This document shows positions 8,073 through 50,482 of a DNA stretch of 64,000 bases, one piece after another. Both the position numbers and the translations under genes were made by a program. Numbering within the stretch: the stretch's first letter is position 1; each line of letters begins with the position of its first letter. Origin of the DNA: Chloranthus sessilifolius (Eukaryota; Streptophyta; Magnoliopsida; Chloranthales; Chloranthaceae). The notes under the pieces were generated by a model. That model ran no database searches and was not told where the DNA came from. It was given only the letters and a program-made list of their open reading frames with translations. The stretch spans positions 86,832,097 to 86,896,096 of the forward strand of contig CM037590.1 in assembly GCA_021018995.1 (NCBI GenBank). Reading direction: 5' to 3'.

Positions 8073-8150
8073 TATAGACACCCCCATTTTTCCCTCTCGA
8101 AATATACAAATTTGTTCCATCAACCTTTGACCTATTAACCCTGATATGGG

Positions 8151-8880
8151 ACCATATACTGAAACAATAGTATAAGGCTGAACACAGGCTGAAACAATAG
8201 TTCTATGACTCAGGCCCCATACCCCCGACGTGGGAACCATGCACTGAAATAATACTACATAGCTAAACACAGGCTGAAACAATAGCTCTGTAGCTCAGAA
8301 CCTGACGTAGGGAGACTATACACTGAAATAATAGTATATAGTCAGAATGCAGAGTGAAATGATAGTCTCGTATATCAGACCCCTTTGCCCTAATGTGGGA
8401 CCATATACTGAAACAATAGTATATAGCTGGACATAGGCTGAAACAATAGTTTTGTGGCTCAGGCCTCATACCCCCGACGTGGGAACCATGCACTAAAACA
8501 ATAGTACATAGCTGAGCACAGGCTAAAACAATAGCTCTGTAGCTCATATCCCAATGTAGGGAGACTATATACTGAAACAATAGTATATAGTCGGATTGTA
8601 GACTGAAACAATAGTCTCATATTTCAGACCCCTAACCCTAATGAGGGACCATATACTGAAATAATAGTATATGGCTGGACACAAGCTGAAACTATAATTC
8701 TGTGGCTTAGGCCCCATACCCCCGACGTAGGAACCATGCACTGAAATAATAGCACATTGCTGAACACAGGCTGAAATAATAACTCTGTGGCTCAGATCCT
8801 GATGTAGGGAGACTATATACTGAAATAATAGTATATAGTTGAAATGCAGGGTGAAGCAATAGTTTGGCATTTCAGACTCG
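8151..8880 (+). repeat. Three-unit array of 18 hairpins in Tat-1 5' LTR
   Basis: Three tandem units start at about 8152, 8401 and 8649, with a period near 249 bp. Each holds six short inverted repeats (A-F) around the same 8-nt centre, GAAACAAT or GAAATAAT. A is ccatatact/agtatatgg; B cacagg-ct/agttctgtg; C ccatgcact/agtacatgg; D cacaggct/agctctgtg; E gactatatact/agtatatagtc; F gact/agtc. Stems differ between classes while the centre stays nearly fixed. The 3' LTR holds the matching array. It lies upstream of the TATA box, in U3. Confidence 0.9.
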
Positions 8881-9331
8881 ACCCGGACCCGGACAACCCG
8901 AATTAAGCACCTACAACCACGCGCGTAATTCGATTGCACGCCAAATCACAAGTACGCAATCAGTCCCTTCTCAGACCAAACTTCCTTTCCCCAAACCAAC
9001 TCAAGACTTGATCACGCGCCTATCATGAGACGCACGATCAGATTGAGTGCCCCGTCACCGATGCGCAATTGGCCTATGCCCGACCTAGTCTTACCGTCCT
9101 TGACCCCTAAGTTTTCTCGATTAAGCGCTTCAAAAGGAACGTTTAATTGGATTATGTACCTCATAATGGGCACACAATTAGTTCTAACGCTATTAGGACT
9201 AGGAAACTTGCTAAGCAAGTCAGTCGATCGCTCACTGAGTCGGTGACCGACTCAAAGCGATTAAGCACCGGGATACCGGCACGCAATTTGATTAAACGCC
9301 TAAAACAGAGCCCTTTAATTGGAGAAAAACC

Positions 9332-9339
9332 TATAAAAG
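9332..9339 (+). promoter_or_regulatory. TATA box of Tat-1 5' LTR
   Basis: TATAAAAG in 'aacctataaaagattttttt'. The matching place in the 3' LTR reads tataaaaa at 57730-57737. Confidence 0.55.
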
Positions 9340-11051
9340 ATTTTTTTCTAATTTGCCCCGAAGAGGCTGGCAATTTTCAAGAGAGAACGGATTTTTTTTA
9401 GGATTCCGAAACCAGAGAACTCCGAGGACAAACCCATAGAGCAACCTAGTGATGATTTCGAGATTCAAGCTTCGAATCTTCGAGGTTTCCCTCCGCAGCC
9501 CCGGTCCTAGGTAAAAATCTTAGTTTTAGACTTAGGATATTTCTCTTAGTTTTAATTATTACTTTTAATTTTCAATCTTAGACCGTAGCACCCTTTTTTT
9601 TAGACCGTGATTTTTATATCTGGTTCTAATTTTCCGAATTTAGAACCAGTCCTTAATCGAGCGGTATAATTTACCGATCGTAAGCTTTAATTCCATTCTA
9701 AAATCTTAATCTCCAGTCCTGTCATTAATTTTTGGTTCTAGGTCTTAGACCCTAGAACCAGTCCTTAATCATACGGTCTGATTTTCTAATTTCAGACCCG
9801 AATTCAGTCTTAGAAATTTAAATTATGGTTTTAATTCCCTATTTTGATACTTCTAAAAATCCTAAATATTAATTTTAGTTTCTCAATTTCACTCATAATT
9901 ATTACTCCGAAATCGGCTCTAAAAAATCTAAAAATACTATTTTATCATCATGAATCCAATTTATCCTTAATCTCAGCCACCCGATTTGCCCAAGGGAGCT
10001 TACGGAGGGTACTTGAGAACGTGGCCAATCCTCCTTAGCATAGCGGGCCCAAACCCCCTTTTTTTTTAGAATTACTTAGTAGCTTTAATTAGGATTATAA
10101 TATCATTCCATTATTTCTTCTTCGGATTTTAGTATAATCAATTTTCATGCTTTATTTTAATTAAATAATTGCTTCGATTAGAACTCGAATAAAATTAGTT
10201 CCTTTATTTTAATTAGATAATTCTAGCCTAGTTAATTCCTCGCTTTCTTAGATCCCAGTATCAGTAATCAGTCCTTTTATTTCGATTAGAATCTTAGTAT
10301 AATTAATTCATTACTTTGATCATAATTCTAGTCAAATCAGTCCTTTATTTTAATTAGAATCTAGTATGATTAATTCAGTACTTTAATTAGATTTCAAGTA
10401 AGATTAATTCATTGCTCTAATCAGAATTTTAGCAAAATTAGTTTATTTACTTCAATTAGAATTTAAATAAAATTAATTCATTGCTTAAATTAGAGATTTA
10501 GTAAAATCAGTCTTCTATTTTAATTAGAATTCCGGTACAACTAGTATACGTGCTTTACTTAGAATTTCAGTATAACTAGCATGCTTGGTTTAATTAAAGT
10601 TTCATTAAAATTAATGCACCTGCATTCCTAGTACAATTAGGAGACCGATGTTAATTGGACTTTTAGTAGTATTAGGACATTATGTTAATTAGAATTCTAG
10701 TAGTGCTAAGAAACTAAAATTAATTAGACTCCTGATAGAATTAGAAAACTAAATTAAATAAACTATAATAAATTCCCACATAACTAAACTCATAGTAGAA
10801 TTGGGAAGTCTAAACTGATCAAAACTATAACAATAACGGAAAGGGAAGAAAAATGAAACTATCTAAATTATAAGGAAAGACATAGTTACTGACGTTCGTA
10901 GGCGAACGATTCAGTATAGAAGTAACCCACACCCGCTCCAAAGCGTGATCATTGACATGTTACAGCGTCATTAAATATCTGCAGCTGGCGATCGCAATAA
11001 ATTAGGAACCTTCCTAGAAAACCCTTTACTTCTAATATTTCAAACACCGCA

Positions 11052-13717: not shown

Positions 13718-15082
13718 GTGAGAGAAAGAGAAGTTAACTTGCCTCCCTTATCTCACATCATCCCTCCACCAATTTCTACACCTCAACCATTCCAACCACC
13801 AGCACCTAAGGCCCATCGGCCAGGCAAAGAAACTGCGCTCGAGCCAGGGCAAGAATATGACCTTCTGCGGCATCTCCAGAAGATCTCAGCCCAGATATCC
13901 ATACTAGAACTCATCAAGAAATCGCCTAACCATCACCGATTGTTGATAAGGACACTTGAAGACACACAAGTGAATGAGGATACGACCCTACATGAGCTTC
14001 ATCAAATCACTTCGGTCATAGTGCAACATCCGATGCTCACTTTTATATACGCAGACATGCCTAAAGAGTCACTCTGCGGGAGTGCGGCCCCCATATATCT
14101 TACAGTCATAATTAGAGGATTCTTTGTACCACACGCACTCGTTAACACGGGAGCAGGACTTAACATCTGCCCTCTCACCAAGTTAAAAATGCTCGAATAC
14201 ACGGAGTAGGATGTCAGGCCCTCTACACTATCACTCATAGCTTATGATGGGTCATGTCGCTTTGTCAAAGGAACTATCAAGCTACAGGTTCGCCTCGGAC
14301 CTATAACGGAAGATGTTACCTTCCATGTCTCTGATTACGCTAGTACATATAATCTCATTTTAGGAATAAAATGGTTGGAGTCAATGAAGGTCTTCGTATC
14401 CACATACCATCAATGCGTCAAATTCCCTTACGAGGACTCTATCGTCCGTATATACGTTGATGCACCCCTCCAGGAGATGGATAATGATTACCCGGTGAGC
14501 ATACCAACCGCTCACGATTATGTATTAAACACAAGCCACATTTAAAAGACTCGAATCCCTGGTGAGACAATCGTTGCGGAAGTCCGTCCCCCTATCCCTC
14601 CTAGTTCTCCCCCAACGCGTCAACAAAAATTAGTGAGAAGAGAGGTTAGCCCAGACCTCGCCAAACTCTATGTCATTAACCCTACTGTAATAAAAGGGTG
14701 GGACCTTATGTACCAACTTGGATACGTTCCCTACATCGGACTTGGTAAAAATAAGCAAGGTCGTATAGGACCCGTTGTCCCAATGCAAATACGTAATCAC
14801 ATAGGGTTAGGCTACCAATCGGACGGCCCTGCCTCACCAAAATGGTCTCTATATGACCACTTCGCTTATGGGATTACTGAGAAAGTAGATGTGTCAAAGC
14901 ATAAGGAAGTGCCCTTCACTAGATACCAAGAAGTGGAAATTGAGCGAATGACTAAAGCATTCAATGATTTAACCAATTTAAACGACGATATTGATAAACC
15001 GCTAGAAGAAGTCAAGCTCATGTTTGACACTAAAGAATTTCTAGAAGAGAGGAGAGAAGGACCTCCAGAACTCGACCCATGA
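13718..15082 (+). pseudogene. Tat-1 protease and G-patch (broken)
   Basis: Aspartic protease that would cut the Gag-Pol polyprotein. The flap-side motif ALVNTGAGLNICPL is at about 14135-14180. The catalytic D of D-T-G has become N (codon AAC at 14144-14146), so the enzyme would be dead. The later hydrophobic motif YNLILGIKWL is near 14350. After two stops (14206, 14542) a G-patch follows: MYQLGYVPYIGLGKNKQG at about 14708-14761, a mark of Tat/Ogre elements. The tail is acidic and ends at the stop at 15080. Confidence 0.85.
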
Positions 15083-16290
15083 CTAGAAGAGCACTTACGC
15101 TTAACCTGGGAAAGAGATGACACTCCACAAGAAAATACTAACTCATATAACATCCGCCTTGGTCTTGGCCTTGAGGGATGGGAATACCCTTGGGACTCCC
15201 CTTGTATCGCCTACCCATACCAGACTCGCTATATGGCATGCACCAGCATATTAGAATGCTTCGCTAGTTGGATCCGACACTCCACAATAGAAAAATTGAA
15301 TCATTCTAACATCGCGACCACAAACACAAGTAATGACCTACCAGCTCAGCTACCAGCATAAGAAGCAAAAAATCCCAATGGTCATCTGGTTGACCAAGGG
15401 AGAAACACCCAATATGCCCTCATAGAGTTTGAAGAGGAACTTGAACTAGACATTTCTCTGTCTCCAAACATGCCACAACTCCAAATATTTTAGAAATATC
15501 TCGAGAGAGAACCCTCCGAGTGATGACGAGGACTAATGGATAGACCTCCCTACACTCGAGCTAGCGGAGCGGACCAACCTAGGACTTCAAACACTATCAG
15601 ATCAAGAAGATAAATTCGATACCGTCTTCAACTCTAACCTAGAAGGATGGGAATGTCCTTGGGGATCCCCCTGCATTCTTCACCATGATCAACCTCGCTA
15701 TTGAGCATGCACGCTCATCCTAACATATTATAAAGATTAAGGAAAAGAACTCAATACCCCTGAGGATTCTTTGGGAGATCCCCCTTGGTGGTAAGAGCAA
15801 TATTATTACAACCCAGAAGATGATAGTTTAATTGACTACGATCTTCAGCTTCGAAGAAGGGGCGATCAATGTGGCAGGAGAAATCCAAACATTAGTGCCG
15901 CTGTCACCAACATCACTCATTCAAAAGATCTCACCAGATGAGGACTCTAAAAAAAATGCCAAATTCACAACAAGTCTGCATTTCTTGAAGAATCTCTCGA
16001 ACGACTTCAGTAGTCGTCTCGCTCCCTCAACTAGAGGAAGCAGTTCTCCCGGCGCCCCTTAAGGCGACCGACCCTGTACCATATTTATTATCAAAAATAA
16101 AAAAAATAAAAAAAATAGAAAACCCTAAAAATTCAAAAATACAAAATCTAAAAAATAAGAAAACCCCAGAAAAGAAACGAAACTCTTCCTCTCGAACCAA
16201 ATTTGTGGCAAATAAGGAGACTTTTCTCCTAACGTTTCTATCCCATTCCCCGCACAAGGACGTAAAGCATTTCAGTTAAACAACAAGCCA
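15083..16290 (+). other. Tat-1 protease-RT linker with duplicated module
   Basis: Acidic linker broken by stops. A short module occurs twice about 475 bp apart: LEGWEYPWDSPCIAYPY followed by TRYMACTSIL (about 15169-15255), and LEGWECPWGSPCILHHD followed by PRY-stop-ACTLIL (about 15640-15725). I do not recognise the module. The constant residues are G-W-E-x-P-W-x-S-P-C, then R-Y, A-C-T and I-L. A further open piece at 15832-16062 shows no known motif. Confidence 0.55.
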
Positions 16291-17560
16291 ATGATCATAC
16301 CGGACAAGATACTTCATGGTTTTGAGAGAAGAATCAGTAGTCTTGACCTTCACTTCATCGAAGATCTCTTAGTCATAGATTATGCCGATGAAGGGTTACC
16401 TTTTGCAAACTCAGATCCCCTGTGTGACAAATTTGCAGTATACGAACTTATCAAAGACAAAGAAGGAGCACCAACTGTCGAGGAGGCACTGGACTTCCAA
16501 CGGGTATCAAGTGTTTCGATGAGCAAACCCAAGCTACAGCGAAACCCACAGAAAAACTTAACTTTGGCACTAAAAAGAAACCCAAGAAGCTACTGATTAC
16601 TGCAATGCTCAACTCCAAGGAACGCCAAGCACAAGTCCTGTAAGAACACCTCAATTCCTTTGCATGGTCCTATGAGGACATGCCTGGTTAAGACCCAAGT
16701 TTAGTAGAACATCACCTTGTCTTAGAACCCGATGAAAAGCCTATTAAATAGAAACTCTGCAGGATGCACCCACAAACCGCCCTCCAAGTTAAAGAGGAAG
16801 TCGATAAGTTACACAAAGCCAAATTTATCCGAGTCGCTCTTTACCCTAAGTGGGTCGCCAATATAGTACCTATCGCTAAGAAAGACGACAGAGCACGGGT
16901 TTACATCGACTTCCAAAACCTCGACCAGGCATGCCTAAAAGATGACTTCCCACTTTTACACATTGACACTCTAGTCGACAACACTGTTGGACATGAGATG
17001 CTATCCTTTATGGGCGATTTCTTTGGATATAATCATATCAAATTAGCAGAGTTCGACCAAGAGAAGACTTCCTTCACCACACCATGGGGAACATACTATT
17101 ATATCATTATGCCTTTTGAGCTCAAGAACGCAGGAGCCACGTATCAATGCACCATGATGGCTATCTTTCACGACATGATGCATAAGTGTGTAGATGTCTA
17201 CGTCAATGACATACTAGTGAAATCCCAAATGTGAGTAGGACATGTTGGAACTCTTTGACTGGTCTTATAAAGAGCCAAGAAATATCAGCTAAAAATAAAC
17301 CCAAGTAAATATCTCTTCGGGGTCACTTCTGGAAAATTACTTGGTTTCATAGTTAGCAAGCGAGGGATCGAAGTTTACCCTATAAAAGTTAGAGCCATCC
17401 TCGAGATCTCGTATCCCAGTAATATCAAAGAGTTACGAGCCTTGATAGGAAGATTACAATTCATCAGAAGATTTATCTCCCAGCATTCGAACAAATGTGA
17501 TCCTTTCTACAAACTACTTAAAGGAGGAACTGAGTACAAATAGGATGATCAGCGTCAGCA
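16291..17560 (+). pseudogene. Tat-1 reverse transcriptase (broken)
   Basis: RNA-dependent DNA polymerase of the element. Readable landmarks are LQVKEEVDKLHKAKFIR (16780), WVANIVPIAKKD with VYIDFQNL (16850-16920), motif A region LSFMGDFFGYNHIKLAEFD (canonical MDGFSGYN-like, here altered), YYYIIMPFELKNAGATYQ, and motif C YVNDILVKS. The first catalytic Asp of Y-V-D-D is N (codon AAT at 17205-17207). Downstream are KCxFGVxxGKLLGFIVSxRGIE-like and IKELRALIGRLQFIRRFI. Stops at 16688, 16750, 17232 and 17540 and a frameshift near 17260 break it. The upstream ORF 16291-16596 is the pre-RT part. Confidence 0.9.
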
Positions 17561-18640
17561 AGCCTTTGACAACATCAAGAAATACCTCCTTAACCCACCA
17601 ATACTATCACCACCGGTCCCCGAAAGACCCCTAATTCTATACCTCTCAGGGAATAACAAAGCAATGGGAGTAATTCTAGGATAATATAAAGAAGACGGCA
17701 AGAGAGAAGGCTATCCACTACCTCAGTAGGAAGATGGTCGAATACGAACAAAAATATACTTCAATGGAGAAGACTTGCCTCCCATTGGTGTGGGCCTCTA
17801 CCAAATTACAACACTACTTCAGAGCATATAAAATACTAGTACTAGACCGAATGGACCCTTTGAAGTACATATTCGAAAAGCCCGTAACATTAGGAAAGAT
17901 CGCTTGCTGGCATATGCTCCTACAAGAATTCGATACCACTTACATCATGAAAAAATTGATCAAAGGGCAAGCAGTCGCCGATTACCTTGGAGATTTCCCA
18001 CTGCTGAGTGATGAGCCCACGCATGCAGATTTCCCCGATGAGGACCTATTCATGATTCGTAATGAAGAGCTCGATAAGACCTCATGGATCCTTTATTTTG
18101 ATGGTGCTCTAAATCACAAAGGAAAAGGCATCGGGATAGTCCTCCTAAGCCTAAAAGGAGTTGTCATACCTAAAGGCTTTTCAACTAGATTTCCCTATCA
18201 CTAACAATGTCACAGAATACAAAGCCTTTATAGCTGGACTACAAGCAGCACTATAATTAGGTATTAAACAGTTAAAAACTATCGATGATTCCAAACTAAT
18301 AATTTCACAAGTCATAGGAGAATGGAAAACTAAGGAAAGGAGATTAATAGCATACCTAGAAATCGCTTAATATTAAGTAAAGAAATTTGAAATTTAAAAG
18401 AAACTCTTTCACGCACATCCCTAGATTAGAAAACGAGCTCGCAGATTTCTTAGCCACGCCAGCCTCAGTCATTCAAATACCCATCGGACAAGACACTAAG
18501 ACCTTCTTCATTGAAAAGCTGACAGTACCCGCCCGCGAGATAGCATGGACCATCAAGAGAGAATTATCCATCCTCCCTACAAGTACAGGACCGAAAGAAG
18601 AAATCACCTCGGAGAAGCACGTCAAGACATAAACTGAAGT
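17561..18640 (+). pseudogene. Tat-1 RNase H plus second (archaeal-type) RNase H (broken)
   Basis: Two RNase H units follow RT, as known for Tat elements. The first is seen as YTSMEKTCLPLVWASTKL, DPLKYIFEKP and LLQEFDTTYI (17755-17950). The second starts WILYFDGALNHKGKGIGIVL at about 18087 with its first catalytic Asp present. It continues after a frameshift near 18200 with EYKAFIAGLQ, DDSKLIISQV and HIPRLENELADFLA (about 18210-18450). Stops near 17681, 17728, 18255 and 18368 and at least one frameshift prevent expression. Confidence 0.85.
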
Positions 18641-19905
18641 CGCTATGTTCAGATTTGAAAAATCACCGACCGACGATGGATAATCGTGGTATTTTGACAT
18701 CTGAAACTTCTTGAAACATCAACACGTCCCTCCATACGCCATGAAGATTGAATGAAAGACTATAAGGAACCGATGCGCCCGATTTTGCATACGCGGCAAA
18801 ATATTATACAAAAAAACCTTCACTAAAGGAGTACTACTACGATGCATCATGACTGTCGAAGGATAATACATCATTCGAGAAGCACACGTTAGTGCTTACG
18901 GTGCCCACTCTGATAGACTGAGACTTGTCGATCAAGTTATACGACAAGGCTACTTTTTGCCGACAATGAAAGATTGCCACCTCTACGTCCAATCCTGCAA
19001 GCAATGCGAAGAACATGCTGCACTCTTCAAAGCTCCATCAGTTGTATTGAATACTATGACCTCGCCATGGCCATTTTTGATGTGGGCCTTCGATGTCATT
19101 GGACCTTTCGCAGACACCGTTGGGAACACTCACAAGCACGCATTTATACTTACAGCGACCGAATACTACACCAAATGAGTAGAAGTTGAATCCTATGTCA
19201 GAATCACCACTTTAACACTCGTAAAGTTTATCTTTCAAAATATCATCACCAGGTTTGGAGTACCCAGGATATTTTTCACTGACAACGAACCACAGTACAT
19301 CATAGAGAAGACGAAGAAGTTATGCAAGAAGTTTGGCATAACTCTACGCCACTCATCACCATTCTACCCTCAAGGCAATGGACAAACAGAAGCTATGAAC
19401 AAAATGCTAATTCAAATCCTAAAATGCACAGTAAAAATGAGCAATAGAGCCGACTGGCCTGAAGGACTACCAGAAGCACTCTAGGCTTATAGGATCTCTA
19501 TTCGTACAGCCACTAGCCAAACTCCCTACCTCCTTACCTACGGGATGGAGGCAGTCCTACCATATGAGACACAAGTACCATCTTTATGGATTCAACTCGA
19601 TGATGAGCAATCCTTAGATGAGAGGCTAAGGGTAGCTGATCACGCTCAGGTATATCAGAGGAGAGTGGCCAGGGCTTACGATAAGAAAGTCCTTGAATGA
19701 ACCTTTAATATTAGGGAATTAGTCTTATAGAAAATCATACCTTCCAAGCACGCCCATCAGAAAGGAAAATTGAAACCGAACTGGGAAGGAACATATGTCA
19801 TAACAGTCGCATACCCTGGAAATGCCTACATACTGGCGAACCAAGACGGGGAAGAACTCCCTAGCCCTTAGAACGCCATGTACCTTAGAAAATATTATCC
19901 TTAGC
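18641..19905 (+). pseudogene. Tat-1 integrase (broken)
   Basis: Inserts the DNA copy. The zinc-binding N domain has H...H (AHVSAYGAH) and CKQC (18880-19010). The core keeps all three acidic residues: the D in WAFDVIGPF, the D in FFTDNEPQ and the E in QTEAMNKM. The C-terminal part runs through WEGTYVITVAYPGNAYILAN and closes with LRKYYP and a stop near 19905. Stops at 18867, 19176, 19483, 19697 and 19727 replace residues such as Trp in YTKW, LWAY and LWK contexts. Apart from the stops it is the best preserved domain. Confidence 0.9.
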
Positions 19906-23649: not shown

Positions 23650-23699
23650 CTAAAAGACCGAAATGAAACAAAAAAGCACATACACATGACGATCTATAC

Positions 23700-39295: not shown

Positions 39296-39700
39296 AAACA
39301 TACCCAAATCGCGCGCATAAATTCATGCACTCAAACCAATCACGCACCACTGTCACCGCGTAAAATTCAGATCACACGACCGGTCTTGAGCGCATAACCT
39401 AATCGTCGCCCGCTCAAACTAACCCAGCCATCTAGTTGCGCGCAACCTACAAAGAGCATAATCACTTCAAGAGTCGACATAGTGGCACGCGAATGCCAAT
39501 GGTCACCCGTGCCAGCCACCACCCTAATCACGCGCCCGGTACCATGCATTTAACTCGGTCAAACGACCAGAAACTGGCACTGAAAGATATTCTGATGCTC
39601 TGAACGCGCGTCCACCCTTTGTCACACAATTAATTTATGCGCTCAGAGTGAAGCACGCAATTCCCCATAAATACAAAGAAGGAAAAATGCTCAGGGCAGT
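39296..39700. other. Tat-1 noncoding region with cgcgc-type motifs
   Basis: No gene seen. Repeated short motifs such as aatcacgcgc, caatcacgca, gcgcgcaacc and catttaactcggtc recur every 30-60 bases. They resemble those in the Tat-1 LTR (8910-9320) and at 53985-54360. It sits upstream of the antisense gene promoter and is cut by Athila-2 at 39701. Confidence 0.6.
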
Positions 39701-42369
39701 TGTTGCTGGATCCTTTGGAGCTATTGTTTATTGTGTGGTGGAAACCAATGAAAAACAAAGTAAAATAAAAGAATGAATTCAACACAACCAAAGTAATCCT
39801 TACCTGCAAGATATAGGGTCTAGTATAGCAAATTTTGATAAGAGTTTATCCTACAGGGAAATTAATCTAGAACCCCAAATGGGCTATAATAGTAGGCCTC
39901 CAGATCTGGCTACAGTTCAGGCAATCTTAAAGAAAGGGAGCTGGGTGTCACGACTACGCTAAATTAATCCTAACAACAGAGAAATAAAATATAGCCCTAT
40001 CCTAAAGAAAGGGTTAAGAAGAAGATGGTGCTAGTGTGTACCAAAATAAAATATCAAAATTGGTGAGAAGTAAGCAGGTTAAGTTCAGAGTTAAAGCAGT
40101 AATATAACTCAAATTTAGTCTGTCTCTTCAGTGCTCCTTAATGAGACGCTATCAAAAGCCTCTACAAGGTAGAAGTGTCCAACTTAACCCATGCCATTTG
40201 GGGTTCTCTTAAGGCTATAGGCTGTCCACTCAAATGATCACAGCATATCCTATAGAGTCTGTCAAATCCCATTGCAAGCCAGAAGTTGCTAATCTAATCC
40301 AGAGGAGTGGACTGATCATTTCCCCAGCCATTGGACCAGACCAGGCCATGAATACTATTGCAATACTATGTAATGTCAGTGCTACAAGCTCCCCAGATTT
40401 GTGCAAAGATCTTACTGACATCCATAGGTATTCCAACCCATAAGATCCTAAGTGCTTTGCCAAGGCCAACGGCTCACTGGTGCCCACAAAAAGGACCATG
40501 CAACAGGTTGAATAGGGATTTAAATTCAGCTGGTCATTGCTACAAATGGCCTGTAATGACTCAGCCTGAAGCTATAATTACTACAGAGAGATCAGATCTA
40601 ACATATGATATCATCTAGGTAAAACAGAGGGGAGCCAGTTCCTGTACAAACCTCCTCATAAGGCTCTAGAAGCTCATGTGCAGGGGAGAAGAATCTTTCT
40701 CAAACATGTGAATGGACAACACCTTAGGGCTATACTCTGTCCACTCGAATGGTCATAGGGTATCCCATTGGTCTGTCCATACCACAGAGATCTGAGAAAA
40801 AACATGTAAACTACTGTAACCACCATGCTCTATAGGCCTCCGAGCTCTCCAGATCTCACTACAGATCCAGCATTGCTTTCCATGGGGCTATCAAACTAAG
40901 GGAAATCAGATGGTAAACAGTAGATTTACTAGAAACTGAATGGGCTAATCCCAAATACATGGATCCTATAGACATCAAAAGAAACCATAAGATCTTTATA
41001 ATTAATTAGGCATTAAAACAGTAATCCATTGATAAACACAAAACTGATAATGAACTGTCTCCAGGCTCCAGCCTATACACAACTGCTCATCCAAAATCCC
41101 AATGTATATTAAACCTATTACAAACTGAAATAAAGTAAACGTAACTGCTTACAGGGGGATTAGCCAGCAAGTGCTGGGCTAAGAGAGAAGAAAAATAGAA
41201 AAAAGAGGTGATCAAACCCTAACCCTAGCCTGCTGGAGCTCTCAACTGACAGAGGATGAAAAGAAGGGTCGATGCAAAACTAAACTCTAAGTATAGCTTA
41301 TATACTCTATCCATACAGCCTTGGCTCTGAAGAGATTAACCCTAATTTTTCCAGCAGACGTGGCACTGTTACAACCCTTGAATGCCTTGAGATGCATGCC
41401 TCGAAATTCATGCCTCAGGATGTGTGCCCTAGCCTTGGGAAATTCCCAAAAGGTCCTTGAGTTAAAATTAAGAAGTGCGGAGCTCGTGCTTCACGGGGCT
41501 GGCATATGCATTCATTCATTCGTGCAGTTGTAGAGCCTTCATGAAGTAGCTTTTGGTTGGTAGGAAGTGCTCACTCGCGCAATGAATCTTCAGTTAATCA
41601 CGCAGTTCCTTTGCACTGCACTGCCGTCGCGGAGATGATCTGGAGTGCCTAGACTTCTCGCACAGTAGAGCTTCAGAAGCTCTCTCTCTCACTAGGTACT
41701 CACGCAGGTCTGCTCCTGCGCTCGCGTAGTAATTGGTAAGGCTTCAAAGTGCACAAGATCTATGCAAGGAGAATTTTGGGCGTCTCTCTCTTCCAGGGCC
41801 ACGCATGAACTCTGCGAGGTGAAATTTTGTTCAGTACACACATGGACTCGCTATGTTCTTTGCGTGGCTACTTTAAGGCTTGATCTCTACAAGAGCTTCG
41901 CGACCACAAATTTTGAGGATTTTAATTTATGAGATCTTTGCGATGTCTTTACAGCTCTCCTCTTGACTGCGCATCCTATCTGCGCGAGGGCATCTTCCAC
42001 TACATCCTTAGTTTCGTGAGCGAGCTTCTTAACTCTGCGAATTCTTTCTTTCTATGCTCTGATGCATTGCACTTACTGCTGTTACAATTTTTCCATTCTC
42101 AGCCAACTTCATCCATCTGCTAGGCTTTTGGTCAATGATGACCAGTAAATGAGTCACCATGGTGAGCACTACTAGGGTGTTTCATTAGGCAGCTATCATC
42201 TTTGCATGTCTTCTTCCTCTTCTTTAGGCCAATAAGGATGGATTTTATATTAAGCTGCACAGATTATTGCTAACTACAAAACACACTTAACAAATGATTA
42301 TTAGTCTGCTTTAAGGTCTATCAAAGGCTAGGTTATGAGGTGAAAAGTGATACTTTTCAATGAATAACA
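39701..42369 (-). repeat. Athila-2 3' LTR
   Basis: The + strand ends are TGTTGCTGGATCC and GAATAACA. It holds two variants of the R-U5 hairpin (about 40208-40258 and 40728-40775). A cluster of TCGCG/TGCGNGA motifs (about 41570-42040) replaces the CTRTCGA motif of the other Athila LTRs. The right-hand 520 bases match 51590-52114. Confidence 0.85.
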
Positions 42370-42380
42370 CACCCCCGAAC
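42370..42380 (-). other. Polypurine tract of Athila-2
   Basis: On the minus strand ttcgggggtg immediately precedes the LTR start TGTTATTC. Confidence 0.75.
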
Positions 42381-44028
42381 CTAATTTTTGCTAGTCCCTA
42401 TGCAAAGAAAAATTTAAAACAACTATTCTAAGAATGTAAATGCCACTATTGTAGGGAGCACAGATACATTTAGCACATATACCAAGCCTTTAAACTCCTA
42501 GGTGATCCCTAGTCGAGGTGTGATGTCTCCTGAGGGTTTTCAGTGAAGATACCCACAAACTTCTCAATAAAATAATTAACAAATGTGCAAAATTATCAAG
42601 TTAGCTGTCAAGAAACAGTGTATTAGTTCACCTTTGGTTCAACAAAAGAAAATCTATGAGGAATTTGAACATATGATTATGCACAGACATTTTCTCATCA
42701 CAGCTTCTACATAGATGCACATCATTTCCAATTAGCTCACAGCAGGGGAAAACATCACATGTAGGTCAGTACTGAATTCATCATTAATTCAAAAATTAGG
42801 TTCTAGGTCGTGCCCAATACATTTAACATCAGACCCAATGCTTACCAAGGCATACTTCTCACAAGGAACTTCGAGGGTTTCTATTTTCTCTCAAGCTCAA
42901 GAGCAGTTAAAGGCCTCAAATGGGTCTGTAAGCATGAGCATAGGCATAGCATCTAAGTTCTAGCATCATTGGCTAATCCTTACCATAGATTAGACAGCTC
43001 TTTGTCTCTGCATGATAGCTCATTCAACTTTGGATCACAGAGACTTTTAACTGGGTTGTAATGTGGCTTATGAGATAGGTTATAAAGAATGAGTGGTTGA
43101 AAAGGGAGTCAAAATTAAGAAATCAGTAGGTGAAGGAGGTGATTCATGACTTCACCTTCTTTAGTTCAGCACCTTTCCTTGTCTTTAAAAATTATTTTGA
43201 CTTGATGTGGCCAGCTTCTCCTCTTATTTTTTATTTTTCAAGGAACTTTTTCTCTTATTTCTTCTCTTATTCCTCTTCATTATTATTTTTTTCTTTCTTT
43301 TTGGATACATTTTTCTTTTTGTTTTTATTTTTCTGACTTGCCACCTCTCTCCTTAGTTGCTACACTACTAAGTTTTAAGTATCCCTTCTCCATTCACCCA
43401 ATGTTGACCTTATCTTGTCCATCTTCAGCTCCTTTTCCTTTACCTTCTGATTTCTCAGAGTGAGTGTCTGTTTGAATCAGGTCCATAGGTTCAGGTACAA
43501 GTACTCAGGTGTATTTTGAAGAAAATTAGAAATTAAGGCTTAAAAAGTGTGTGCACAAGGGCAGTTAATTAACGTATGGTCTGTTTAAGCTCAAACTGTC
43601 CAAGAGAAGGTCTTGATCCTTTCCTAAGTGTCATGAGTACTGTCAGTTGTTTCAACTTGGAGGTGCCTAACTTCTAGTGAGGGAACAAACTTAGCTAGTT
43701 CTTAGGGCTAGAAGAATTGCCTCAGTTACTCCTTAAAGAAAGGAAAAAAAAATTGTAGGCCCAAATCTCACTAGTTATGGTCTTCTATTGAGCTCTTAGG
43801 CATGTCCTTACCCTTTTCTCTCTTTAATAATTCACTAAGTATTGATACAAGTGAGTTTTCTTGGTATTCACATCATGGAAATACTAAAATTTAAAAGCTT
43901 GTGATGCCTCAAGGTCTGCAAAATATTTTTTTTTTTATGATTATTAAGTGAACATGGATCCATTTCTATCTTACTCACTTGATTCTACTGCACTTAAGTT
44001 AACTACTTTATTGGCTGAGCTTGCCATA
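42381..44028 (-). other. Athila-2 conserved 3' noncoding region
   Basis: Related to 26837-28280 and, inverted, to LARD-A 2150-3550; for example 'gtgatccctagtcgaggtgt' at 42500 and 'gcatgagcataggcatagc' at 42935. No coding signal. Confidence 0.75.
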
Positions 44029-44061
44029 CCCCCAATCCTATGAGGAGCAGTGTCCTAACTG
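44029..44061 (-). promoter_or_regulatory. Athila-2 hairpin plus internal G-run
   Basis: On the minus strand CAGT and ACTG flank TAGGAC (44048-44061), followed by ctcataggattgggggtatgg. The stem is shorter than in the other three elements but the AGGA and the G-run keep their places. Confidence 0.55.
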
Positions 44062-44334
44062 ATTCAAAGTTATATGTGGTTGTGCAGCAGGCTCAAGACA
44101 TAGACATTAACAGAACATAAACTACAAGAGAGAAAAACACATAACAAATAATACATAAACAAACACCCAGAAATAAGATAGTGAACAAAACATTATAATA
44201 TCTAAAGTATGTACAAAGTAAGGGAAAGAAAAGTATAAAATTCACAAACTACTGCCTAACTAAATACATGTGCACAATTTAATCGCCATCTGAGTCTGTG
44301 GCTAAATATATGTTGGGTCATCTTTAATTTAGAC

Positions 44335-46313
44335 TCATTTCCCTTTCTCGGACTTCCCAACAGCAGGTGGATGTATTCTCCCAGTTGCTAGAGCTAATTG
44401 CCTTTCAAGGACTTCAGCTTTTTGTTCCGCCAATTCAGCTCGGGATATAAGGAGCTCCTTGATCTCCTTTAAAGCAGTCAACCTCTTCTCTAATCCATCA
44501 GCTCTCAGCTTTTTTATTGCAGCAGCCATTTTCTCTTGTTCAGCATTCAGCTTCTCTTGGGCAGCTATACTCTCTTGGGCTTTATTTAAACGCAACAATT
44601 GTCTCCACCCTTTTGCAATGTTCTTGAGCTGCATCTCATTATCCAATTTTATGCGATGGGTCCTTTCTTCATAGGGTATCCTGATGGATGTTCTGATAGT
44701 AGTCATCCATCGAATGACATCCTTTTTAAGGTAAGGATTAGATTGTATTACATGAAGGAGGGTGGAGAGGGGGGATGGACAAAGAAGAGGCAGGAATCAA
44801 AGGCTGGTCCTCACTTGAAGAAGGGCTAGTCAGGAATGAAAAAGGAATGGGTTGGGGAATTACATATTAAAGCTCAGGTTGGGGTTCTAGATCTTGTTCT
44901 ATTTGGATTGACTTGGAAGAGGTGGGTATTAGGTCATCCACTTCTGTTGCAGCATCGGAGGTGGCTACGACAGGGGGAGTATCTGGGTCAGTTAAGGTGG
45001 AGGCTTCAGTGTAAGTAGGAGGGGGTGTGGTGGCTGCTATAGATAAGGGTTGGGGTAAGGTAGCTAAAGTTGATTGGATGGCTTGGAAGCAAGTTTGTAG
45101 GTAGGCTTGCTTTTGGAGAGTGGAGGTTAGGGATTGAATGTATGTCTCAATGGAGGCTTGGTTTTGGGTGTTAGCCAGCATTTGAGACTGTAGGGAGAGT
45201 AAGAGGTGTAGGATTTGAGGTAAGAGGTCTGGTATGATATTGGGTGTAGGTTGGATAGGTGAAACTAGCTGGAAGGGAGATATGGATCTATGAGTGAAGG
45301 TAGTGGCCTGTGGTGGTGTCTGTTGTGGAGGGGTAAAGTGTGGAGGGTGAGGTGAGTCTGGGAAAGGTGTATACTCAAGGCTGATGTCACCTAGGACATG
45401 GACATCATAGTGGAAAATTCCTCTCCTAAAAATGGCTCATGGTCATGGGAGAAGGGAATGGATTGGTCTACAGGCTCACCAATGATAGGTATAAAAGGTG
45501 GGGAAATCTCAATGGAATAATGTGAGACTTCGAAGGTATGGGGTTCAGGTTCATAAGGTGTGGGTATGGGGTCTGGAATGGTTGTAGTTTCAGGGATTGG
45601 AATTATTTGGGTGATATAGGTGGGATGGGGTGCAGTAGGGGTTTTGGTAGTTTTTTTTTTCTTCTGGTATGGGGTCTTGACAGGTGGGCTAGGGTGGGCT
45701 AGAAAAATAAGTAGGGGTGCAGAAATAGGTAGGGTGATTGTGGCTATGGTGATTAGTGATATAGGGTCAGGTAAGGGTAGTGGGCTTGTGATGGGCTGTG
45801 ATGTCTGAGTTGAAGGTGGAGCTGGCATGGAGTTAGAGGTAATGGATGAGGAGGTGAGTGATGTGCTGGCTGGCACAAGTGAGGTGGAGGTTGCAACAGT
45901 AACAGTTGTAGCAGCAACTACTTCATGAATGGTGGGGGCTGCTTCTCTCAGTAACTTCTCCCTCTTCTTCTTCTTCTTCTTCGCTACCATGGTGCCACTG
46001 ATTCCCCACTGTTTCTTCCCACTCTGTTTGGAGTTCAGTTCCATAGTCTCCTCCTCCCTTTTAAATGGGTACTTCTCCCACTTCAGCAATGCAGTAATCA
46101 ATCTACAGTAGGAAAGGGCATGAGGTTTCTTCATTATTTTCACCTTCTCGCATAAATCTATAATCCTCTCAAAAACTAACTTGGCGGCATCTAAGTAGTG
46201 GTTTCTGTGAAATGAGAAGAGGGCATCAGCTATGGGGTACCTCCTCTCCTGCTCATGCCCAGAGCAATATATATTTTTTCGCAACACAGCATCCATTAGC
46301 CTAAGGTTGGGGT
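44335..46313 (-). pseudogene. Extra ORF of Athila-2 (putative plant transposon protein), truncated
   Basis: The upstream piece, 46313 to 45391, reads LRLMDAVLRKNIYCSGHEQE, LDAAKLVFERIIDLCEKVK and HALSYCRLITALLKWEKYPF. This is like the end of the 'putative plant transposon protein' domain found in Athila-like elements. A Lys-rich run and a long Pro/Thr/Ser region follow. After frame changes come 45181-44867 and then 44706-44335, a strong coiled coil (LNKAQESIAAQEKLNAEQEK, LEKRLTALKEIKELL) ending KSEKGK and a stop. The 5' end is lost at the LARD-B insertion. The role of this ORF is unknown. It occupies the env position but shows no membrane segment. Confidence 0.65.
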
Positions 46314-48873
46314 TGTTGAGCACTGAAATATACCACTTTCTACCCCTTAACCTGGCCTATGACGGACCTGTGAGCATGTTAATAATGTCTTTTAAGTGTG
46401 TTTTTACAGATAACAGCAAAATACAAGCTTAATGTTGCAATCCATGCTTTTAAAGCCAAGAAGAAGGAGTTTTGTGTTTAGCAGTGGAGCTGATGGATTT
46501 ATTGAAAAGGCACTATGGTGGTTCACACCATTGGGGCTTTTTAGCATGCTTTGGGGGCCTTTGAAGACCTACTGAGAGAGAGTGGTGAAGCCCAAGTTTT
46601 ATGGACTGCTGCTACAACGAATTTAGCAAATCGGCAATTTAGCAATTTATATATTCAGCAGTGCAGCAGTTCAAGTGGCACTTGTGCAGCTTTGGTTAAA
46701 GCAATCTTTGAAGCATAAAAGCAGCTGATACCATTAAAGATGTGAGCACTTTAGTGCTGATGCACCAAGCCATAATACTACAAAGCCAGCATGCATAGCT
46801 GCCTTGAAGAACTTGAACAGTTGGCTGAAGTGTCACTGCAGCACTCAGCAATTTTAGTGCCGCAAACCAAGTCCTTCAAGCAGGTTTATTGCTAGAAAAT
46901 GAGCCACAATAGTAGCACAACTGCTGTATTTGAAGGACTAGAGAAGATGTCAAAGCGGGAATGTGGATTGTAGAGCTGTTATGTGTTGAAAATAAACTCC
47001 ACGAGGGGTTGTTTTAAACCCCACAAGCTACAGTGTTGAAAAAAAGGCTAAAATTGAACCTGTCGCAACCTATCGAATGGTTTTTTAAACCTGTCGCAAC
47101 CTATCGAATGGTTGTTTGAACCTGTCGAGAACCTGTCGAGAGGTTCTGATGCTGAAAATGAACCTATCGAGCATCCTGTCAAATGGTTGAATGAACCTGT
47201 CGAGATCCTGTCGAATGCACACCTGAAGCCCATCCAACCTATCGAACAGATGCCTGAACCTATTGAGATCAAAGTTCTAAAGCTCCAACCTATCGAACAG
47301 ATGCCTGAACTTGTCGAGATCGAAGTTCTGAAGATCCAACCTATCGAGGCACGGGTTTCAGCCATCTATTTCACACTTTAGGGACATTTTGGGGATTCCA
47401 ATGCTTCTAGGGCACACATCCCAATGTCCCACACATCTCAGGGATTTATCTCGAGTTCCATTAGCAAATATCAATGGTCGGTAGGGGCATTTTTGAGAGC
47501 TACAAAAACACATCACCTGGGTACAAATTTCTGCACATGGGATAGCAATCCACATGTGATTTTCCTTGGCCGAAATAAAGACACCTCAGCTATGCATAAT
47601 AGAACTGAGTCCTCTGCTCTCTGATTGGCTGTAACTCAAGGCACATGGATCGATGCATATGTATAAATACCCATCTATTCTGATGTTTTTCTTCAGCAAG
47701 GAAAGTAGGAACAAAGGAATAGCCTGAGTTCTCCTTAGCTCAGTTAGGTTTAGTTTAGGTTTTTATTTTCTTTTTCTCTTCCCCCTTCTCTCTCTAATCT
47801 AGCATGTTGGATTAGATTTAGATAGTAGCTCAAATCTGGTTTGTAATTGTAATTTCGGCATGAAGAAATGAGGATCGATGCACAGACTACAGATCTGGGA
47901 ACAAGTTTATTGTAAGTTGTTTTGTTTGAAGCAATAAATTATTGATTTTAAAGCCTAGTTAAATCTAAAGATCTTGTGGTCCCATTAGATTCTTGATCGG
48001 ATTTCTGTAGAGGGGCCAAGGCCCACCCGCTTAACTGGTAGATCGCTTGATGACCATCTAATTTCCCTGGGTTTGATATGCCTGTGGGTGTCTGTGCCTG
48101 TGGCCTTGTATCCACAGCATCTATAGTGATTTTAATGCTCTGATCGAAGCCATTGGAATGGAGGAAATCTATTGGATGATCTGTCACCATTTAAGTTGAC
48201 AGATCATAGCCATAAGAGCAATCCAAACTAGGGATGGAGGAAAACTATTGGATGGTCTGTAACCATTTAAGTGGACAGATCATAGCCATAAGATGAATCC
48301 AAACCACCGGTCTAGATCGGATTCTTCTACCTTAATCCTTTGGATTGGATGAAGTCTATAGGATGATCTGTGACCATTCAAGTGGACAGATCATACCCTT
48401 AAGATCAGTTCAAGCCTTTGGTGTAGAGTGGATTCTTCTACCTTGCATTTGTGCTTGTAGCCAAATGAAGGATGGTTGCATATCCTCAAATCTTGATATA
48501 TTTTGCAATAAGAACCAGGTCCTGGCTGCCTATTTCTCACCATTTGATATTTATTTTTCCATCCATTTTCCTCCACCTTTTAGTTTAGTTTCATTTCAGT
48601 TTTATAGAATTAGATCTAGTGACACCCGAAAAGCTCTCTTTCTTCTTAGAATTGCCAGATCTATAGCTAGATCTGGAGGTCTACTATGCACCACTTAGGT
48701 TTAGATCACTACTCCATGTGGGACAAACTCTTATTAAAACTTGCTTCAAAGGACCCTGTATCTTGCAGGTCTAGGATATTTTAGTTGTGCTTAATTCACC
48801 CTCTATTTTACTTTGATTTTATTTTCTTTCTTTTCATTACACAATAAATCAGCACACTGAAAATCCCCCAACA
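46314..48873 (+). repeat. LARD-B 5' LTR
   Basis: TGTTGAGCACTG to CCCCAACA, as in LARD-A. Aacctgtcgag/cctatcgaa motifs lie at 47050-47350 and a TATA box TATAAATA at 47662-47669. Three tandem copies of a long inverted repeat lie in R-U5 (48176-48394). The last 350 bases match the LARD-A LTR end. Confidence 0.92.
48176..48394 (+). repeat. Three R-U5 hairpins in LARD-B LTR
   Basis: Copy 1 (48176-48207) has perfect 10-bp arms ATGATCTGTC and GACAGATCAT. Copy 2 (about 48250-48284) and copy 3 (48363-48394) keep the core gaccattnaagtggacag with small arm changes. Related copies lie in every other Athila LTR here. The place, downstream of TATA and upstream of the primer site, fits a packaging, dimer or translation signal; none is shown. 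Confidence 0.8.
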
Positions 48874-48879
48874 AGTTTT

Positions 48880-48897
48880 TGGCGCCGCTGTCGGGGA
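48880..48897 (+). other. Primer binding site, aspartate tRNA type (LARD-B)
   Basis: TGGCGCCGCTGTCGGGGA, two changes from the usual plant tRNA-Asp complement, six bases after the LTR end. Confidence 0.92.
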
Positions 48898-50482
48898 GTT
48901 TTGATCTAGATAGTAGATCTAAGTTTTTCAATTTTGTAGATCTGATTTTCATTTTAGTTTTTGCTTTAAACCTGCACATTGCATTCCAAGTGCTTGATTA
49001 AATGTCTACTGTAGTTTTTGTATAGAAAACCTGTTTTACTACAGCAGAATTTTTGATTTTTCTGAGTTTTTATTCTTTGCCTTCTAGTTGTTTGAATAAA
49101 TGTTGTTGTCACTCTTTTGTCATTTGGCAAAAATGAGGTAGTGGCCTGAGTTTTTCTTTTTGTCACTATACTTGAATAAGGTACTGCTGCAGTTTTTGGA
49201 TTTTTACAGATCTGGAACAGCTGCCAAACAAGGAGCATCTGGATTGCAGCAGGAGCGGATCAGCTTGAGTTTGCATCCCCTTTCTCCTTTTGCATTCATT
49301 TTATATTTTTTGAATTCTTGAGAACCAGTTGTTTTGTTGTGTTTGATGTTTGTTTTGATTATAATTTCTCCTGTCTTTTAGGCATGCTGATTTTTTTTTA
49401 TAAAACTAAATACAAAAATAAAAGAAAATGAAAACACAAATAGAAAATCTCTGAGTTGTTTCTTATTATTTTTTTAGTAGTAGTAAATAAGGGCTCTTGT
49501 TGAGCCCGGGCTGATCCAAAACAAATTTTAAAAAATAGAAAATTATAAAAACATAAAAAAATATCTTCCAGATGGGCTATTTTTCTTTGTTTCTATCCAA
49601 TTTTCTCATCTGGACCTACTGAGATCATGTTTTTTTCATTTTTAGGAATCATGTAGGATAATGAGCAGTGGCTCATAGGTTGTTTTGAATATTCAATGGA
49701 CCCACTGATTTTATTTTCCCTCGAGATTCCTTCATTATTAATGGGTCTCAGCTGTGTATGAACCCTATTTTTAATGTGTGCTCCCATGCTTCATTATTCT
49801 TTTTGATTCATACACATCATCAACAAAAGGGGTCAGTCTTATGAATCTTGCTTTTCACTGTATGTTTCTCCTGCTGATCATTTTTATAATCACTTAGATT
49901 CATAAGTATCTCAGGCTTTTGGGGTTTTCTTTGGGCTTAGGGGCTTTATGATTTGGTATTAGGATTTTCTGTTTTAGGAATTTTAGTTTAAAATTCTGTT
50001 TTTAGATTGCTGTTTTTCTTTCTTAGGTTAATGTGTCCTAGTTTTACTGATTCCTTACATTTTTCTGCGATTATAGTTACTTTCTAACCTTGTCTTCCTA
50101 ATTTTGTGTTTAGAATTTTGTTTTTGTATCTGCATTTTTCTTTTTCTTTTTAGCTTTGTATTCAGTCCCTTACCTTGTTTTTACTATTTTTCTGTTATTA
50201 GAATTAGTTTGCTGTCATTTCCATAATAGTTCTTTTATTTTTCTATTCATATAGTCAGTTGGTAGTTTGTATTTGGTAGTAGTTATAGTTTTGTTTTGCT
50301 ATTTTTCCTATTTTATTAGTAATTTTTTTGCATTTATATAGTATTTTTTCCATTTTCCTGCTCATATATTCAGTTTTATTTTTATTTTTTTTATTATTTT
50401 CTGCTGCATATTGCTCTAATTTTTTTTTTCTTTCTGCTTAGTTTTATTTTTACCCTACTGCCCCTAGTTTCTCATTGTCTAG
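48898..50482 (+). other. LARD-B leader, T-rich, noncoding
   Basis: Aligns with 454-1930 of LARD-A, including 'agcccgggctgatccaaaac' (LARD-A agcccaggctgctcaaaaac). No gene. Confidence 0.75.

What the first reader, a model, noticed from the sequence alone, without database searches (positions are those of the whole stretch)
8151..8880. LTR array of 18 hairpins with a fixed 8-nt centre (6 types x 3 units)
Seen directly: three units of about 249 bp, each with six different inverted repeats in the same order. All are built around GAAACAAT/GAAATAAT and open with CT...AG next to the centre. Stems differ between types, yet both arms change together (ccatatact/agtatatgg, gactatatact/agtatatagtc, ccatgcact/agtacatgg). 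The same 18 appear at 56555-57276 in the 3' LTR. An ordered hexad of distinct hairpins tripled inside U3 is not a usual promoter repeat. It could be a protein-binding array, a cruciform or RNA hairpin set, or a small-RNA source.
Basis: seen in the sequence. Interest (0 to 1): 0.88.

Follow-up and report, generated by a model that had tools for sequence, protein, structure and literature searches.

The report
Palindrome array in plant retrotransposon promoter
The promoter end of an old, very large plant jumping gene carries 18 evenly spaced copies of one short DNA motif set between mirror-image arms, probably a docking array for a DNA-binding protein, and the same array recurs in many other copies of this element in the genome.

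Summary
The array is real. It lies at 8135-8877 and 56533-57277 in the two LTRs of one old, nested Ty3/gypsy element: three ~249-bp units of six centres per LTR. The true repeat is a dyad: a 9-11-bp palindrome (A) plus a bulged quasi-palindrome (B), both centred on CTRAAAYAATAG.
Genome-wide the 12-mer occurs 38,216 times, the reversed control 609 times. Spacing is near-constant in 38 further places. Centre number ranges from 2 (single-dyad subfamilies) to 35.
Constraint is nevertheless visible: relative to spacers, stems and core change less on internal branches and before insertion in five LTR pairs (36:237 against 45:96, P=1.2e-5). For stems, an 18-array replicate was not significant. There is no G.U versus A.C strand bias (P=0.81), so RNA hairpins are not favoured.
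Best reading: an amplified U3 array of protein-binding sites, analogous to Sirevirus palindromic boxes but in an unrelated element with a different core.

The parts
8073..9528 (+). 5' LTR, part shared with the window's 3' LTR; starts TATAGACA (TGTAGA in L039 and L040); U3 with the array, then promoter region. The LTR runs on to at least about 10327
   Evidence: 86.8% identity between 8069-9528 and 56473-57924; boundaries by comparison with L039/L040
8135..8877 (+). Array in the 5' LTR: three units of about 249 bp, 18 centres, 9 A-B dyads
8152..8177 (+). Unit 1, type A1 palindrome, centre 12-mer 8159-8170
   Evidence: fold of the type
8178..8213 (+). Unit 1, type B1 bulged quasi-palindrome, centre 8189-8200
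8237..8262 (+). Unit 1, type A2, centre 8244-8255 (the type usually has a C/A mispair at pair 4)
8263..8298 (+). Unit 1, type B2, centre 8274-8285
8314..8343 (+). Unit 1, type A3, 11-bp arms, centre 8323-8334
8341..8380 (+). Unit 1, type B3; its outer left arm overlaps the right arm of A3, so both cannot be fully paired at once; centre 8354-8365
8378..8625 (+). Unit 2: same six types in order, centres at 8408, 8438, 8493, 8523, 8572, 8603
8626..8877 (+). Unit 3: same six types, centres at 8656, 8686, 8741, 8771, 8820, 8851
9332..9339 (+). Probable TATA box (in CCTATAAAAG), 498 bp after the last centre found at no more than one mismatch
   Evidence: sequence; a box within one mismatch of CCTATAAAA lies 438-576 bp downstream of the last such centre in 14 of 21 copies examined
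14546..19484 (+). Decayed pol of the same element, in pieces: G-patch, RT, RNase H, integrase zinc finger and integrase core, in Ty3/gypsy order
   Evidence: integrase core 29.3 bits, below Pfam's 32.6 cut-off; collinear with L042/L043
24849..38683 (.). Stretch absent from the collinear copy, read as a nested insertion (flanked by a 91%-identical repeat pair)
39699..52120 (.). Second stretch absent from the collinear copy, read as nested insertion(s)
56473..57924 (+). 3' LTR, cut short at its U5 side
   Evidence: W5 and W3 are sisters in the array tree
56533..57277 (+). Array in the 3' LTR: the same 18 centres

Best explanation
The array is an amplified cis-regulatory block in the U3 promoter region of a giant Ty3/gypsy (probably Tat-type) plant retrotransposon. 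Each centre, CTRAAAYAATAG with flanking palindromic arms, is read as a binding site on double-stranded DNA for a sequence-specific protein. That protein is probably a host transcription factor that docks as a dimer or in pairs on each A-B dyad, whose two centres lie about 30 bp (about three helical turns) apart. An ancestral single dyad about 0.55 kb upstream of the TATA box was tripled into a 249-bp unit and the unit was then multiplied, raising site number and hence promoter output or robustness. Shown here: anatomy, genome-wide recurrence, single-dyad relatives, variable centre number, and less change in stems and core, relative to spacers, before insertion than after. Inferred: the direction of growth, the protein, dimer binding, the enhancer effect, and an advantage of more copies.
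For: Position in U3 upstream of a TATA-like box found in 14 of 21 copies. 38,216 exact cores in the genome against 609 for the reversed pattern. Near-constant spacing 30/55/30/49/31/53-55 in 40 arrays. On internal branches of a 37-array tree, 8 of 12 core positions show 0 changes and another shows 1; the most telling, by their terminal counts, are G12 (0 internal, 43 terminal), T10 (0, 15), T2 (0, 14) and C1 (3, 53); R3 (18, 94) and Y7 (77, 128) do change. Internal/terminal ratios: stems 0.136 and 0.160, loop without Y 0.144, spacer 0.288; site-permutation P 5e-5, 3.5e-4, 0.0037; on a second alignment of the same arrays P 0.0003, 0.0004, 0.012. Tree-free test with five LTR pairs: hairpins without Y 36 fixed to 237 post-insertion, spacer 45 to 96, odds ratio 0.32, P=1.2e-5. 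In four single-dyad LTRs the dyad is 81% identical against 52% outside it, gaps counted as differences. No G.U over A.C bias, internal 108:83 against terminal 447:362, P=0.81, as expected for a DNA-level constraint.
Against: In a second set of 18 seven-dyad arrays the stems were only slightly slower than spacers (P 0.29 and 0.15; loop P 0.06). The LTR-pair test rests on five pairs; three further candidate pairs were left out because they were not sisters in the tree. Most A positions of the core also change little after insertion (1-7 terminal changes), so their zero counts say little. A plain dimer site does not explain why A and B arms differ yet both tend to be self-complementary around an asymmetric centre. 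Another U3 block, the LTR 5' end, is as conserved as the dyad (0.82). No binding protein was identified and no expression, footprint or methylation data were available.
Confidence: 0.55

Rival explanations
1. RNA hairpin array. U3 is transcribed at the 3' end of the genomic RNA, and 18 stem-loops presenting AAAYAA loops act there, for example in packaging, export or stability.
For: Both arrays fold well beyond shuffles. On the + strand the R3-T10 pair can close the loop with G.U or A-U, and R3 is one of only two freely changing core sites. Across nine A-type sequences 11 G.U against 3 A.C cells occur, and three pair sites show changes on both sides.
Against: No strand preference on internal branches, 108:83 against 447:362, P=0.81. 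The A2 type usually carries a C/A mispair, 14 of 17 copies in the loci that read. Arms conserve sequence, not only pairing; within-type covariation is absent overall (one pair of B3 had 5 double changes against 1.05 expected). A3 and B3 arms overlap and compete.
Confidence: 0.15
2. Hairpin-derived small-RNA hotspot: the array matters mainly as a target of host silencing, as proposed for maize Sirevirus palindromes.
For: Maize Sirevirus LTR palindromes are small-RNA mapping hotspots (PMC5311732 and PMC10760457, passages read). C>T and G>A make up 58-69% of terminal changes in every category of the array, spacers (58%) included, as expected of methylated DNA.
Against: Silencing alone should select for loss of the array, not for its retention and constraint. 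No small-RNA data here.
Confidence: 0.1
3. Anti-silencing array bound by a protein that the element itself encodes, like VANC on VANDAL repeats.
For: VANC targets are short motifs gathered in noncoding tandem repeats that vary between related elements (PMC5735166, passages read). A related copy carries an antisense plant-mobile-domain ORF between integrase and 3' LTR.
Against: The VANC21 motif YAGTATTAY is not enriched in the window, 2 found against 2.1 expected. No evidence that the antisense protein binds DNA. Not shown that the ORF is conserved in other copies.
Confidence: 0.1
4. Selfish tandem amplification without function: slippage and unequal exchange during reverse transcription multiply a sequence that happened to be palindromic, and template switching keeps the arms alike.
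For: Centre number varies widely. Recurrent 11-nt shortenings (30 to 19) suggest slippage within repeats. Weak constraint signal in the second array set.
Against: Constraint of core and stems before insertion; the dyad is retained in diverged single-dyad relatives; the usual A2 mispair argues against active palindrome correction.
Confidence: 0.1

Closest known systems
Palindromic repeated motifs (RM boxes) in the LTRs of Sirevirus Ty1/copia elements
   Same: Multi-copy palindromic boxes with short centres, clustered in the upper half of the LTR upstream of a TATA box, up to 32 copies per element (PMC2829016, abstract, sections 9 and 19 read)
   Different: Those are Ty1/copia, 12 of 13 with a CGG-CCG core, and form CpG islands; here the element is Ty3/gypsy, the core is CTRAAAYAATAG, the array is CpG-poor (0.29 and 0.45 observed/expected), and distinct palindromes recur in a fixed order in a higher-order repeat
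VANC-binding tandem repeats of VANDAL DNA transposons
   Same: Short motif accumulated by tandem-repeat formation in noncoding DNA, varying between related elements (PMC5735166, passages; PMC10398659, abstract)
   Different: DNA transposon (recalled), element-encoded binding protein known; the VANC21 motif is not enriched here
Retand/Tat-type Ty3/gypsy elements
   Same: Long internal region with antisense ORFs between pol and 3' LTR (PMC11963269, abstract and term hits read); gag, RT-RNase H-integrase order and an antisense ORF here
   Different: The tandem repeats described in that abstract lie between pol and 3' LTR, not in U3; 'palindrom' occurs in that text only in the reference list and 'hairpin' not at all
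Tnt1 box I and similar U3 activator repeats
   Same: Symmetric regulatory sequence in a plant LTR (mentioned in PMC2829016; otherwise recalled)
   Different: Far fewer copies and no ordered higher-order array (recalled)

Membership tests
Sirevirus RM box arrays | Element is Ty1/copia | tested here: not met
   RT-RNase H precede integrase in the window: Ty3/gypsy order; gag and integrase core also in a collinear copy (both integrase-core matches are below Pfam's cut-off)
Sirevirus RM box arrays | At least eight palindromic boxes, clustered in the LTR upstream of the TATA box | tested here: met
   18 centres, nine of A type, upstream of CCTATAAAAG
Sirevirus RM box arrays | CGG-CCG core (12 of 13 elements in Table 3) | tested here: not met
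   Core is CTRAAAYAATAG; table read
Sirevirus RM box arrays | Boxes form CpG islands | tested here: not met
   CpG observed/expected 0.29 and 0.45 in the arrays, 1.27 and 1.21 in the U3 stretch after them
Sirevirus RM box arrays | Small-RNA hotspot over the palindromes | not testable with these tools
   No small-RNA data
Tat/Retand-type Ty3/gypsy | Ty3/gypsy gene order with gag, RT, RNase H, integrase | tested here: met
Tat/Retand-type Ty3/gypsy | Second (archaeal-type) RNase H | tested here: inconclusive
   A WILYFDGALNHKG stretch is present but gave no Pfam match, and a later piece matches RVT_3 only at E=0.16, below its cut-off; that this domain marks Tat is recalled
Tat/Retand-type Ty3/gypsy | Long pol-3' LTR region with antisense ORF | tested here: met
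   Antisense plant mobile domain ORF, E=9.8e-20, in L042; the TRP28 domain named for Retand was not looked for
VANC-type anti-silencing repeats | YAGTATTAY motif in noncoding repeats (VANC21) | tested here: not met
   2 matches in the window, 2.13 expected
VANC-type anti-silencing repeats | Element-encoded protein that binds the repeats | not tested
   No binding assay possible; the antisense ORF is only a candidate

The most novel reading that the evidence does not exclude
An LTR retrotransposon carries its own sequence-specific anti-silencing system: a protein from its antisense ORF binds the dyads of the U3 array and keeps the promoter open. Growth from 1 to 9 or more dyads would then record an arms race with host methylation, a VANC-like system arisen in a wholly different kind of transposon.
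Probability: 0.1. Interest if true: 0.82.

Novelty: new variant of a known kind. Interest (0 to 1): 0.52.

Why it matters
It looks like a second, independent case of plant LTR retrotransposons building large palindromic arrays upstream of their promoters, this time in a Ty3/gypsy element with a different core. That suggests convergence on one promoter design. With forms of 2 to 35 centres in the same genome, it offers a natural series for asking whether site number drives transposition or silencing. It also shows how old insertions can separate pre-insertion constraint from later decay, so that a noncoding motif can be shown to have been under selection without any expression data.

Tried and rejected
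Private tandem duplication: rejected. Strong arm covariation within types: not found overall. RNA strand signature: not found. VANC21 motif: not enriched. The core elsewhere in public collections: the pattern of two cores 15-45 nt apart gave 0 places in viral contigs and 3 in genome contigs, all titled as bacterial MAGs or uncultured bacteria and not examined further. Rfam at gathering threshold: one hit, outside the array. Literature: the 12-mer forms as text gave 15 papers, none with a title on this subject; searches for palindromic or hairpin arrays in gypsy LTRs (0 papers; 15 of 206 listed; 11; 6) gave no such array in the listings; the 2016 Sirevirus paper is not held. A first classification script read only part of the loci because of a naming error; one search repeated it on all 30 plus the window. 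The closed-loop count is not used, because on the + strand an extra G.U pair closes the loop.

Rows dropped: L084, L088, L089 (more than three units) were left out of the 37-array tree, as were L108 and L109 from the 18-array set. Columns with more than 10% gaps were left out in the grouped part and more than 15%. In one search, 199 of 606 loose matches were kept (arm similarity at least 0.65). In one search five of eight candidate LTR pairs were used; the other three (L064/L066, L058/L073, L052/L054) were not sisters in the tree. In one search L022 was left out of the single-dyad alignment.

Full report
WHAT IS THERE. The window holds two copies of a promoter-bearing LTR stretch, 8069-9528 and 56473-57924, 86.8% identical. 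Each has three ~249-bp units with six centres related to CTGAAAYAATAG, 18 per LTR. By chance 16.7 matches at up to two mismatches are expected in the window and 51 are found; 23 are exact and all of those lie in the two arrays, on the + strand. Two kinds of site alternate. A-type sites (CCATATACT/AGTATATGG, CCATGCACT/AGTACATGG, GACTATATACT/AGTATATAGTC) have 9-11-bp arms, the second with one mispair. B-type sites have short inner stems, a one-base bulge on the 3' arm and outer pairs. A and B centres are about 30 bp apart, and three A-B dyads make one 249-bp unit. A count of near-perfect ungapped palindromes gives 6 and 5 per array against about 0.1 in shuffles; outside the arrays the window has 54 such sites, 39 of them in two AT runs.

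THE ELEMENT. A neighbouring copy on another contig (L039, L040, L042, L043) is collinear, in pieces, with window 8075-24848, 38684-39698 and 52121-57026. The window's element is therefore read as one insertion broken up by two long inserted stretches. The arrays of the two window LTRs are sisters in a tree of 37 arrays, as expected of a 5'/3' pair. In L039 and L040 the LTR starts TGTAGA, and in L039 it continues to at least the equivalent of 10327, so the window's 3' LTR is read as truncated. Pfam finds a G-patch, reverse transcriptase and RNase H in the window's own element, an integrase zinc finger and, below the curated cut-off, integrase core after them, and gag, integrase core (again below cut-off) and an antisense plant mobile domain ORF in the collinear copy. 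This is Ty3/gypsy order. A Tat-type second RNase H is suggested but not established (RVT_3 E=0.16).

HOW WIDESPREAD. The genome held for the window is 2.17 Gb in 32 contigs. The exact core occurs 19,349 + 18,867 times, the reversed pattern 314 + 295 times. All 30 clusters among the 100 places that the answer listed, all on contig 1, were fetched. By cores and similarity, 20 of 30 belong to this LTR family and 10 of 30 look like isolated matches. A search with the whole array had 7,283 first-look candidates, 40 scored, 46 matches at 82-100% including the window's own. From that list 38 further places were fetched: 35 show three units in the stretch fetched, three of them (L065, L074, L076) with a further centre at an edge, so they run on; two show four units and one shows six (35 centres). 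Spacing is near-constant, with occasional small insertions and deletions. One search lists only the stronger strand; both strands were counted for the window (one weak minus-strand match inside the 5' array) and for 20 arrays (none on the other strand in 18, one in 2). A second search from another array gave 6,907 first-look candidates, 40 scored; 20 of its places were fetched, 18 of them with 13-14 centres in a seven-dyad layout. A search from a single-dyad LTR gave 3,332 first-look candidates, 40 scored: itself and 39 others at 80-87%. That several thousand LTRs carry the array is inferred from these numbers. Only exact cores were counted over the whole genome.

HOW IT GREW. L014 (two places), L030 and L036 hold a single A-B dyad, and L022 two dyads, in LTRs that otherwise align only in patches. 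In an alignment of the four single-dyad LTRs the dyad is 81% identical and the rest 52%, gaps counted as differences; one other block, the LTR 5' end, is equally conserved. That the single dyad is the older state is inference. Some unit differences are shared by both window LTRs (9, 3 and 3 sites for units 3, 1 and 2), so the units diverged before insertion, although 15 further two-state sites show groupings that do not fit one simple history.

DO THE ARMS COVARY? Within types, not overall. In 199 sites 1819 of 2279 pair cells are Watson-Crick against 1808.5 expected from independent arms, with 25 double changes against 22.7; one pair of B3 stands out with 5 against 1.05. Between types and subfamilies the evidence is thin. 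Nine A-type sequences have 83 Watson-Crick and 11 G.U cells of 99 and three pair sites changed on both sides (none when the partner is slid by 1-3), but a sequence's own arms pair hardly better than arms of different members (83.8% against 80.1% Watson-Crick). Six of those nine are single genomic copies.

IS IT CONSTRAINED? Most variation should be decay after insertion, so I separated the two phases. In a 37-array tree, changes on internal against terminal branches were 128/444 in spacers, 35/258 in A stems, 86/537 in B stems and 19/132 in the loop without Y. The ratios are 0.288, 0.136, 0.160 and 0.144, with site permutation P 5e-5, 3.5e-4 and 0.0037; a second alignment of the same arrays gave P 0.0003, 0.0004 and 0.012. 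Eight of 12 core positions had no internal change and a ninth had one; the others were C1 (3), R3 (18) and Y7 (77). The A positions change little on terminal branches too (1-7), so the telling ones are G12 (0 against 43), T10 (0 against 15), T2 (0 against 14) and C1 (3 against 53). A tree-free version on five LTR pairs gave 36 fixed to 237 within-pair for hairpins without Y and 45 to 96 for spacers, odds ratio 0.32, P=1.2e-5, site permutation P=1e-4; three other candidate pairs were not sisters in the tree and were not used. Against this, 18 seven-dyad arrays gave stem ratios 0.252 and 0.232 against 0.294, not significant (P 0.29, 0.15), and loop 0.163 (P 0.06). Pooled by stratum the stems and loop remain low, z -3.35, -3.78 and -3.02. 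That pooling treats changes as independent and mixes the slightly different filters.

DNA OR RNA? If + strand RNA hairpins were selected, internal changes should favour G.U over A.C. They do not: 108:83 against 447:362 on terminal branches, P=0.81 (both array sets). The A2 type usually carries a C/A mispair, 14 of 17 copies in the loci that read. The arms conserve sequence and not just pairing. All this fits recognition of double-stranded DNA better. Two facts keep RNA alive: the freely changing R3 leaves a G.U or A-U closing pair on the + strand, and A-type sequences show more G.U than A.C cells (11 to 3, few independent events).

HOW IT PROBABLY WORKS. The array sits in U3 with a TATA-like box 438-576 bp after the last centre in 14 of 21 copies examined; in five no such box was found and in two the nearest lay further off. 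I read it as a promoter-proximal array of protein-binding sites. The identity of the protein, pairwise binding on A-B dyads and a dosage effect of centre number are inference.

COMPARED WITH WHAT IS KNOWN. The nearest kind is the palindromic box array of Sirevirus LTRs (abstract and sections 9 and 19 of PMC2829016 read), with small-RNA hotspots reported for maize Sireviruses (passages). It works like those by layout, but it is not a member: Ty3/gypsy rather than Ty1/copia, no CGG-CCG core, CpG-poor. VANC repeats (passages) are a second analogue for motif gain by tandem repetition; the VANC21 motif is not enriched here. Four literature searches listed no paper on such an array in gypsy LTRs; one search listed only 15 of 206, and only open-licence papers are held, so this does not show that none exists.

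VERDICT. A genuine, abundant and in part demonstrably constrained cis-element array; a new variant of a known kind.

Noticed in passing
position 7 of the 12-mer in each centre, e.g. 8165: The Y (C/T) position changes far more than any other core site (77 internal, 128 terminal changes; internal/terminal 0.60 against 0.29 in spacers, 65 and 146), apparently in both directions. Methylation decay alone explains C>T but not the many T>C.
   Followed up: partly
L013, L039, L063, L064, L077, L085, L097: The same 11-nt shortening (centre spacing 30 to 19) recurs within a dyad in seven arrays, possibly slippage between the repeated GCTGAA stretches.
   Followed up: no
L084 (G000:C15:84343271-84344832); L088, L089: Arrays with six and four units, so the array can grow well beyond 18 centres.
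   Followed up: partly
window 9503-10838 and 57924; L041 near 3608: L041 lacks the stretch equivalent to 9503-10838, and the window's 3' LTR breaks off near the same point, next to a CTAG/GTAAA splice-donor-like sequence. It might reflect a spliced leader.
   Followed up: no
L042:3455-4108 (+), antisense to pol: Antisense ORF with a plant mobile domain (PF10536, E=9.8e-20) between integrase and 3' LTR.
   Followed up: partly
8878-9330 and 57278-57735: The U3 stretch after the array is not CpG-depleted (observed/expected 1.27 and 1.21) although the window is (0.49).
   Followed up: no
103-430, 6407-6736, 48553-48874, 57920-58248: A repeated segment with a sharp left edge (TTCTACCATCC or close to it) occurs four times in the window; one copy abuts the truncated 3' LTR.
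   Followed up: no
24852-26822 and 36714-38683: Repeat pair (91% identical), read as LTRs of an element nested in this one, with gag and protease on the minus strand at 33787-35561.
   Followed up: no
35431-35491: Rfam snoR71 match just above threshold (40.2 against 40 bits), opposite a gag ORF; probably chance.
   Followed up: no
L032 near 2510 (G000:C1:34981100-34986100): One exact core lies in an unrelated stretch rich in other GATAC/GTATC-type inverted repeats with a different bulged stem; no similarity to this LTR family was found.
   Followed up: no
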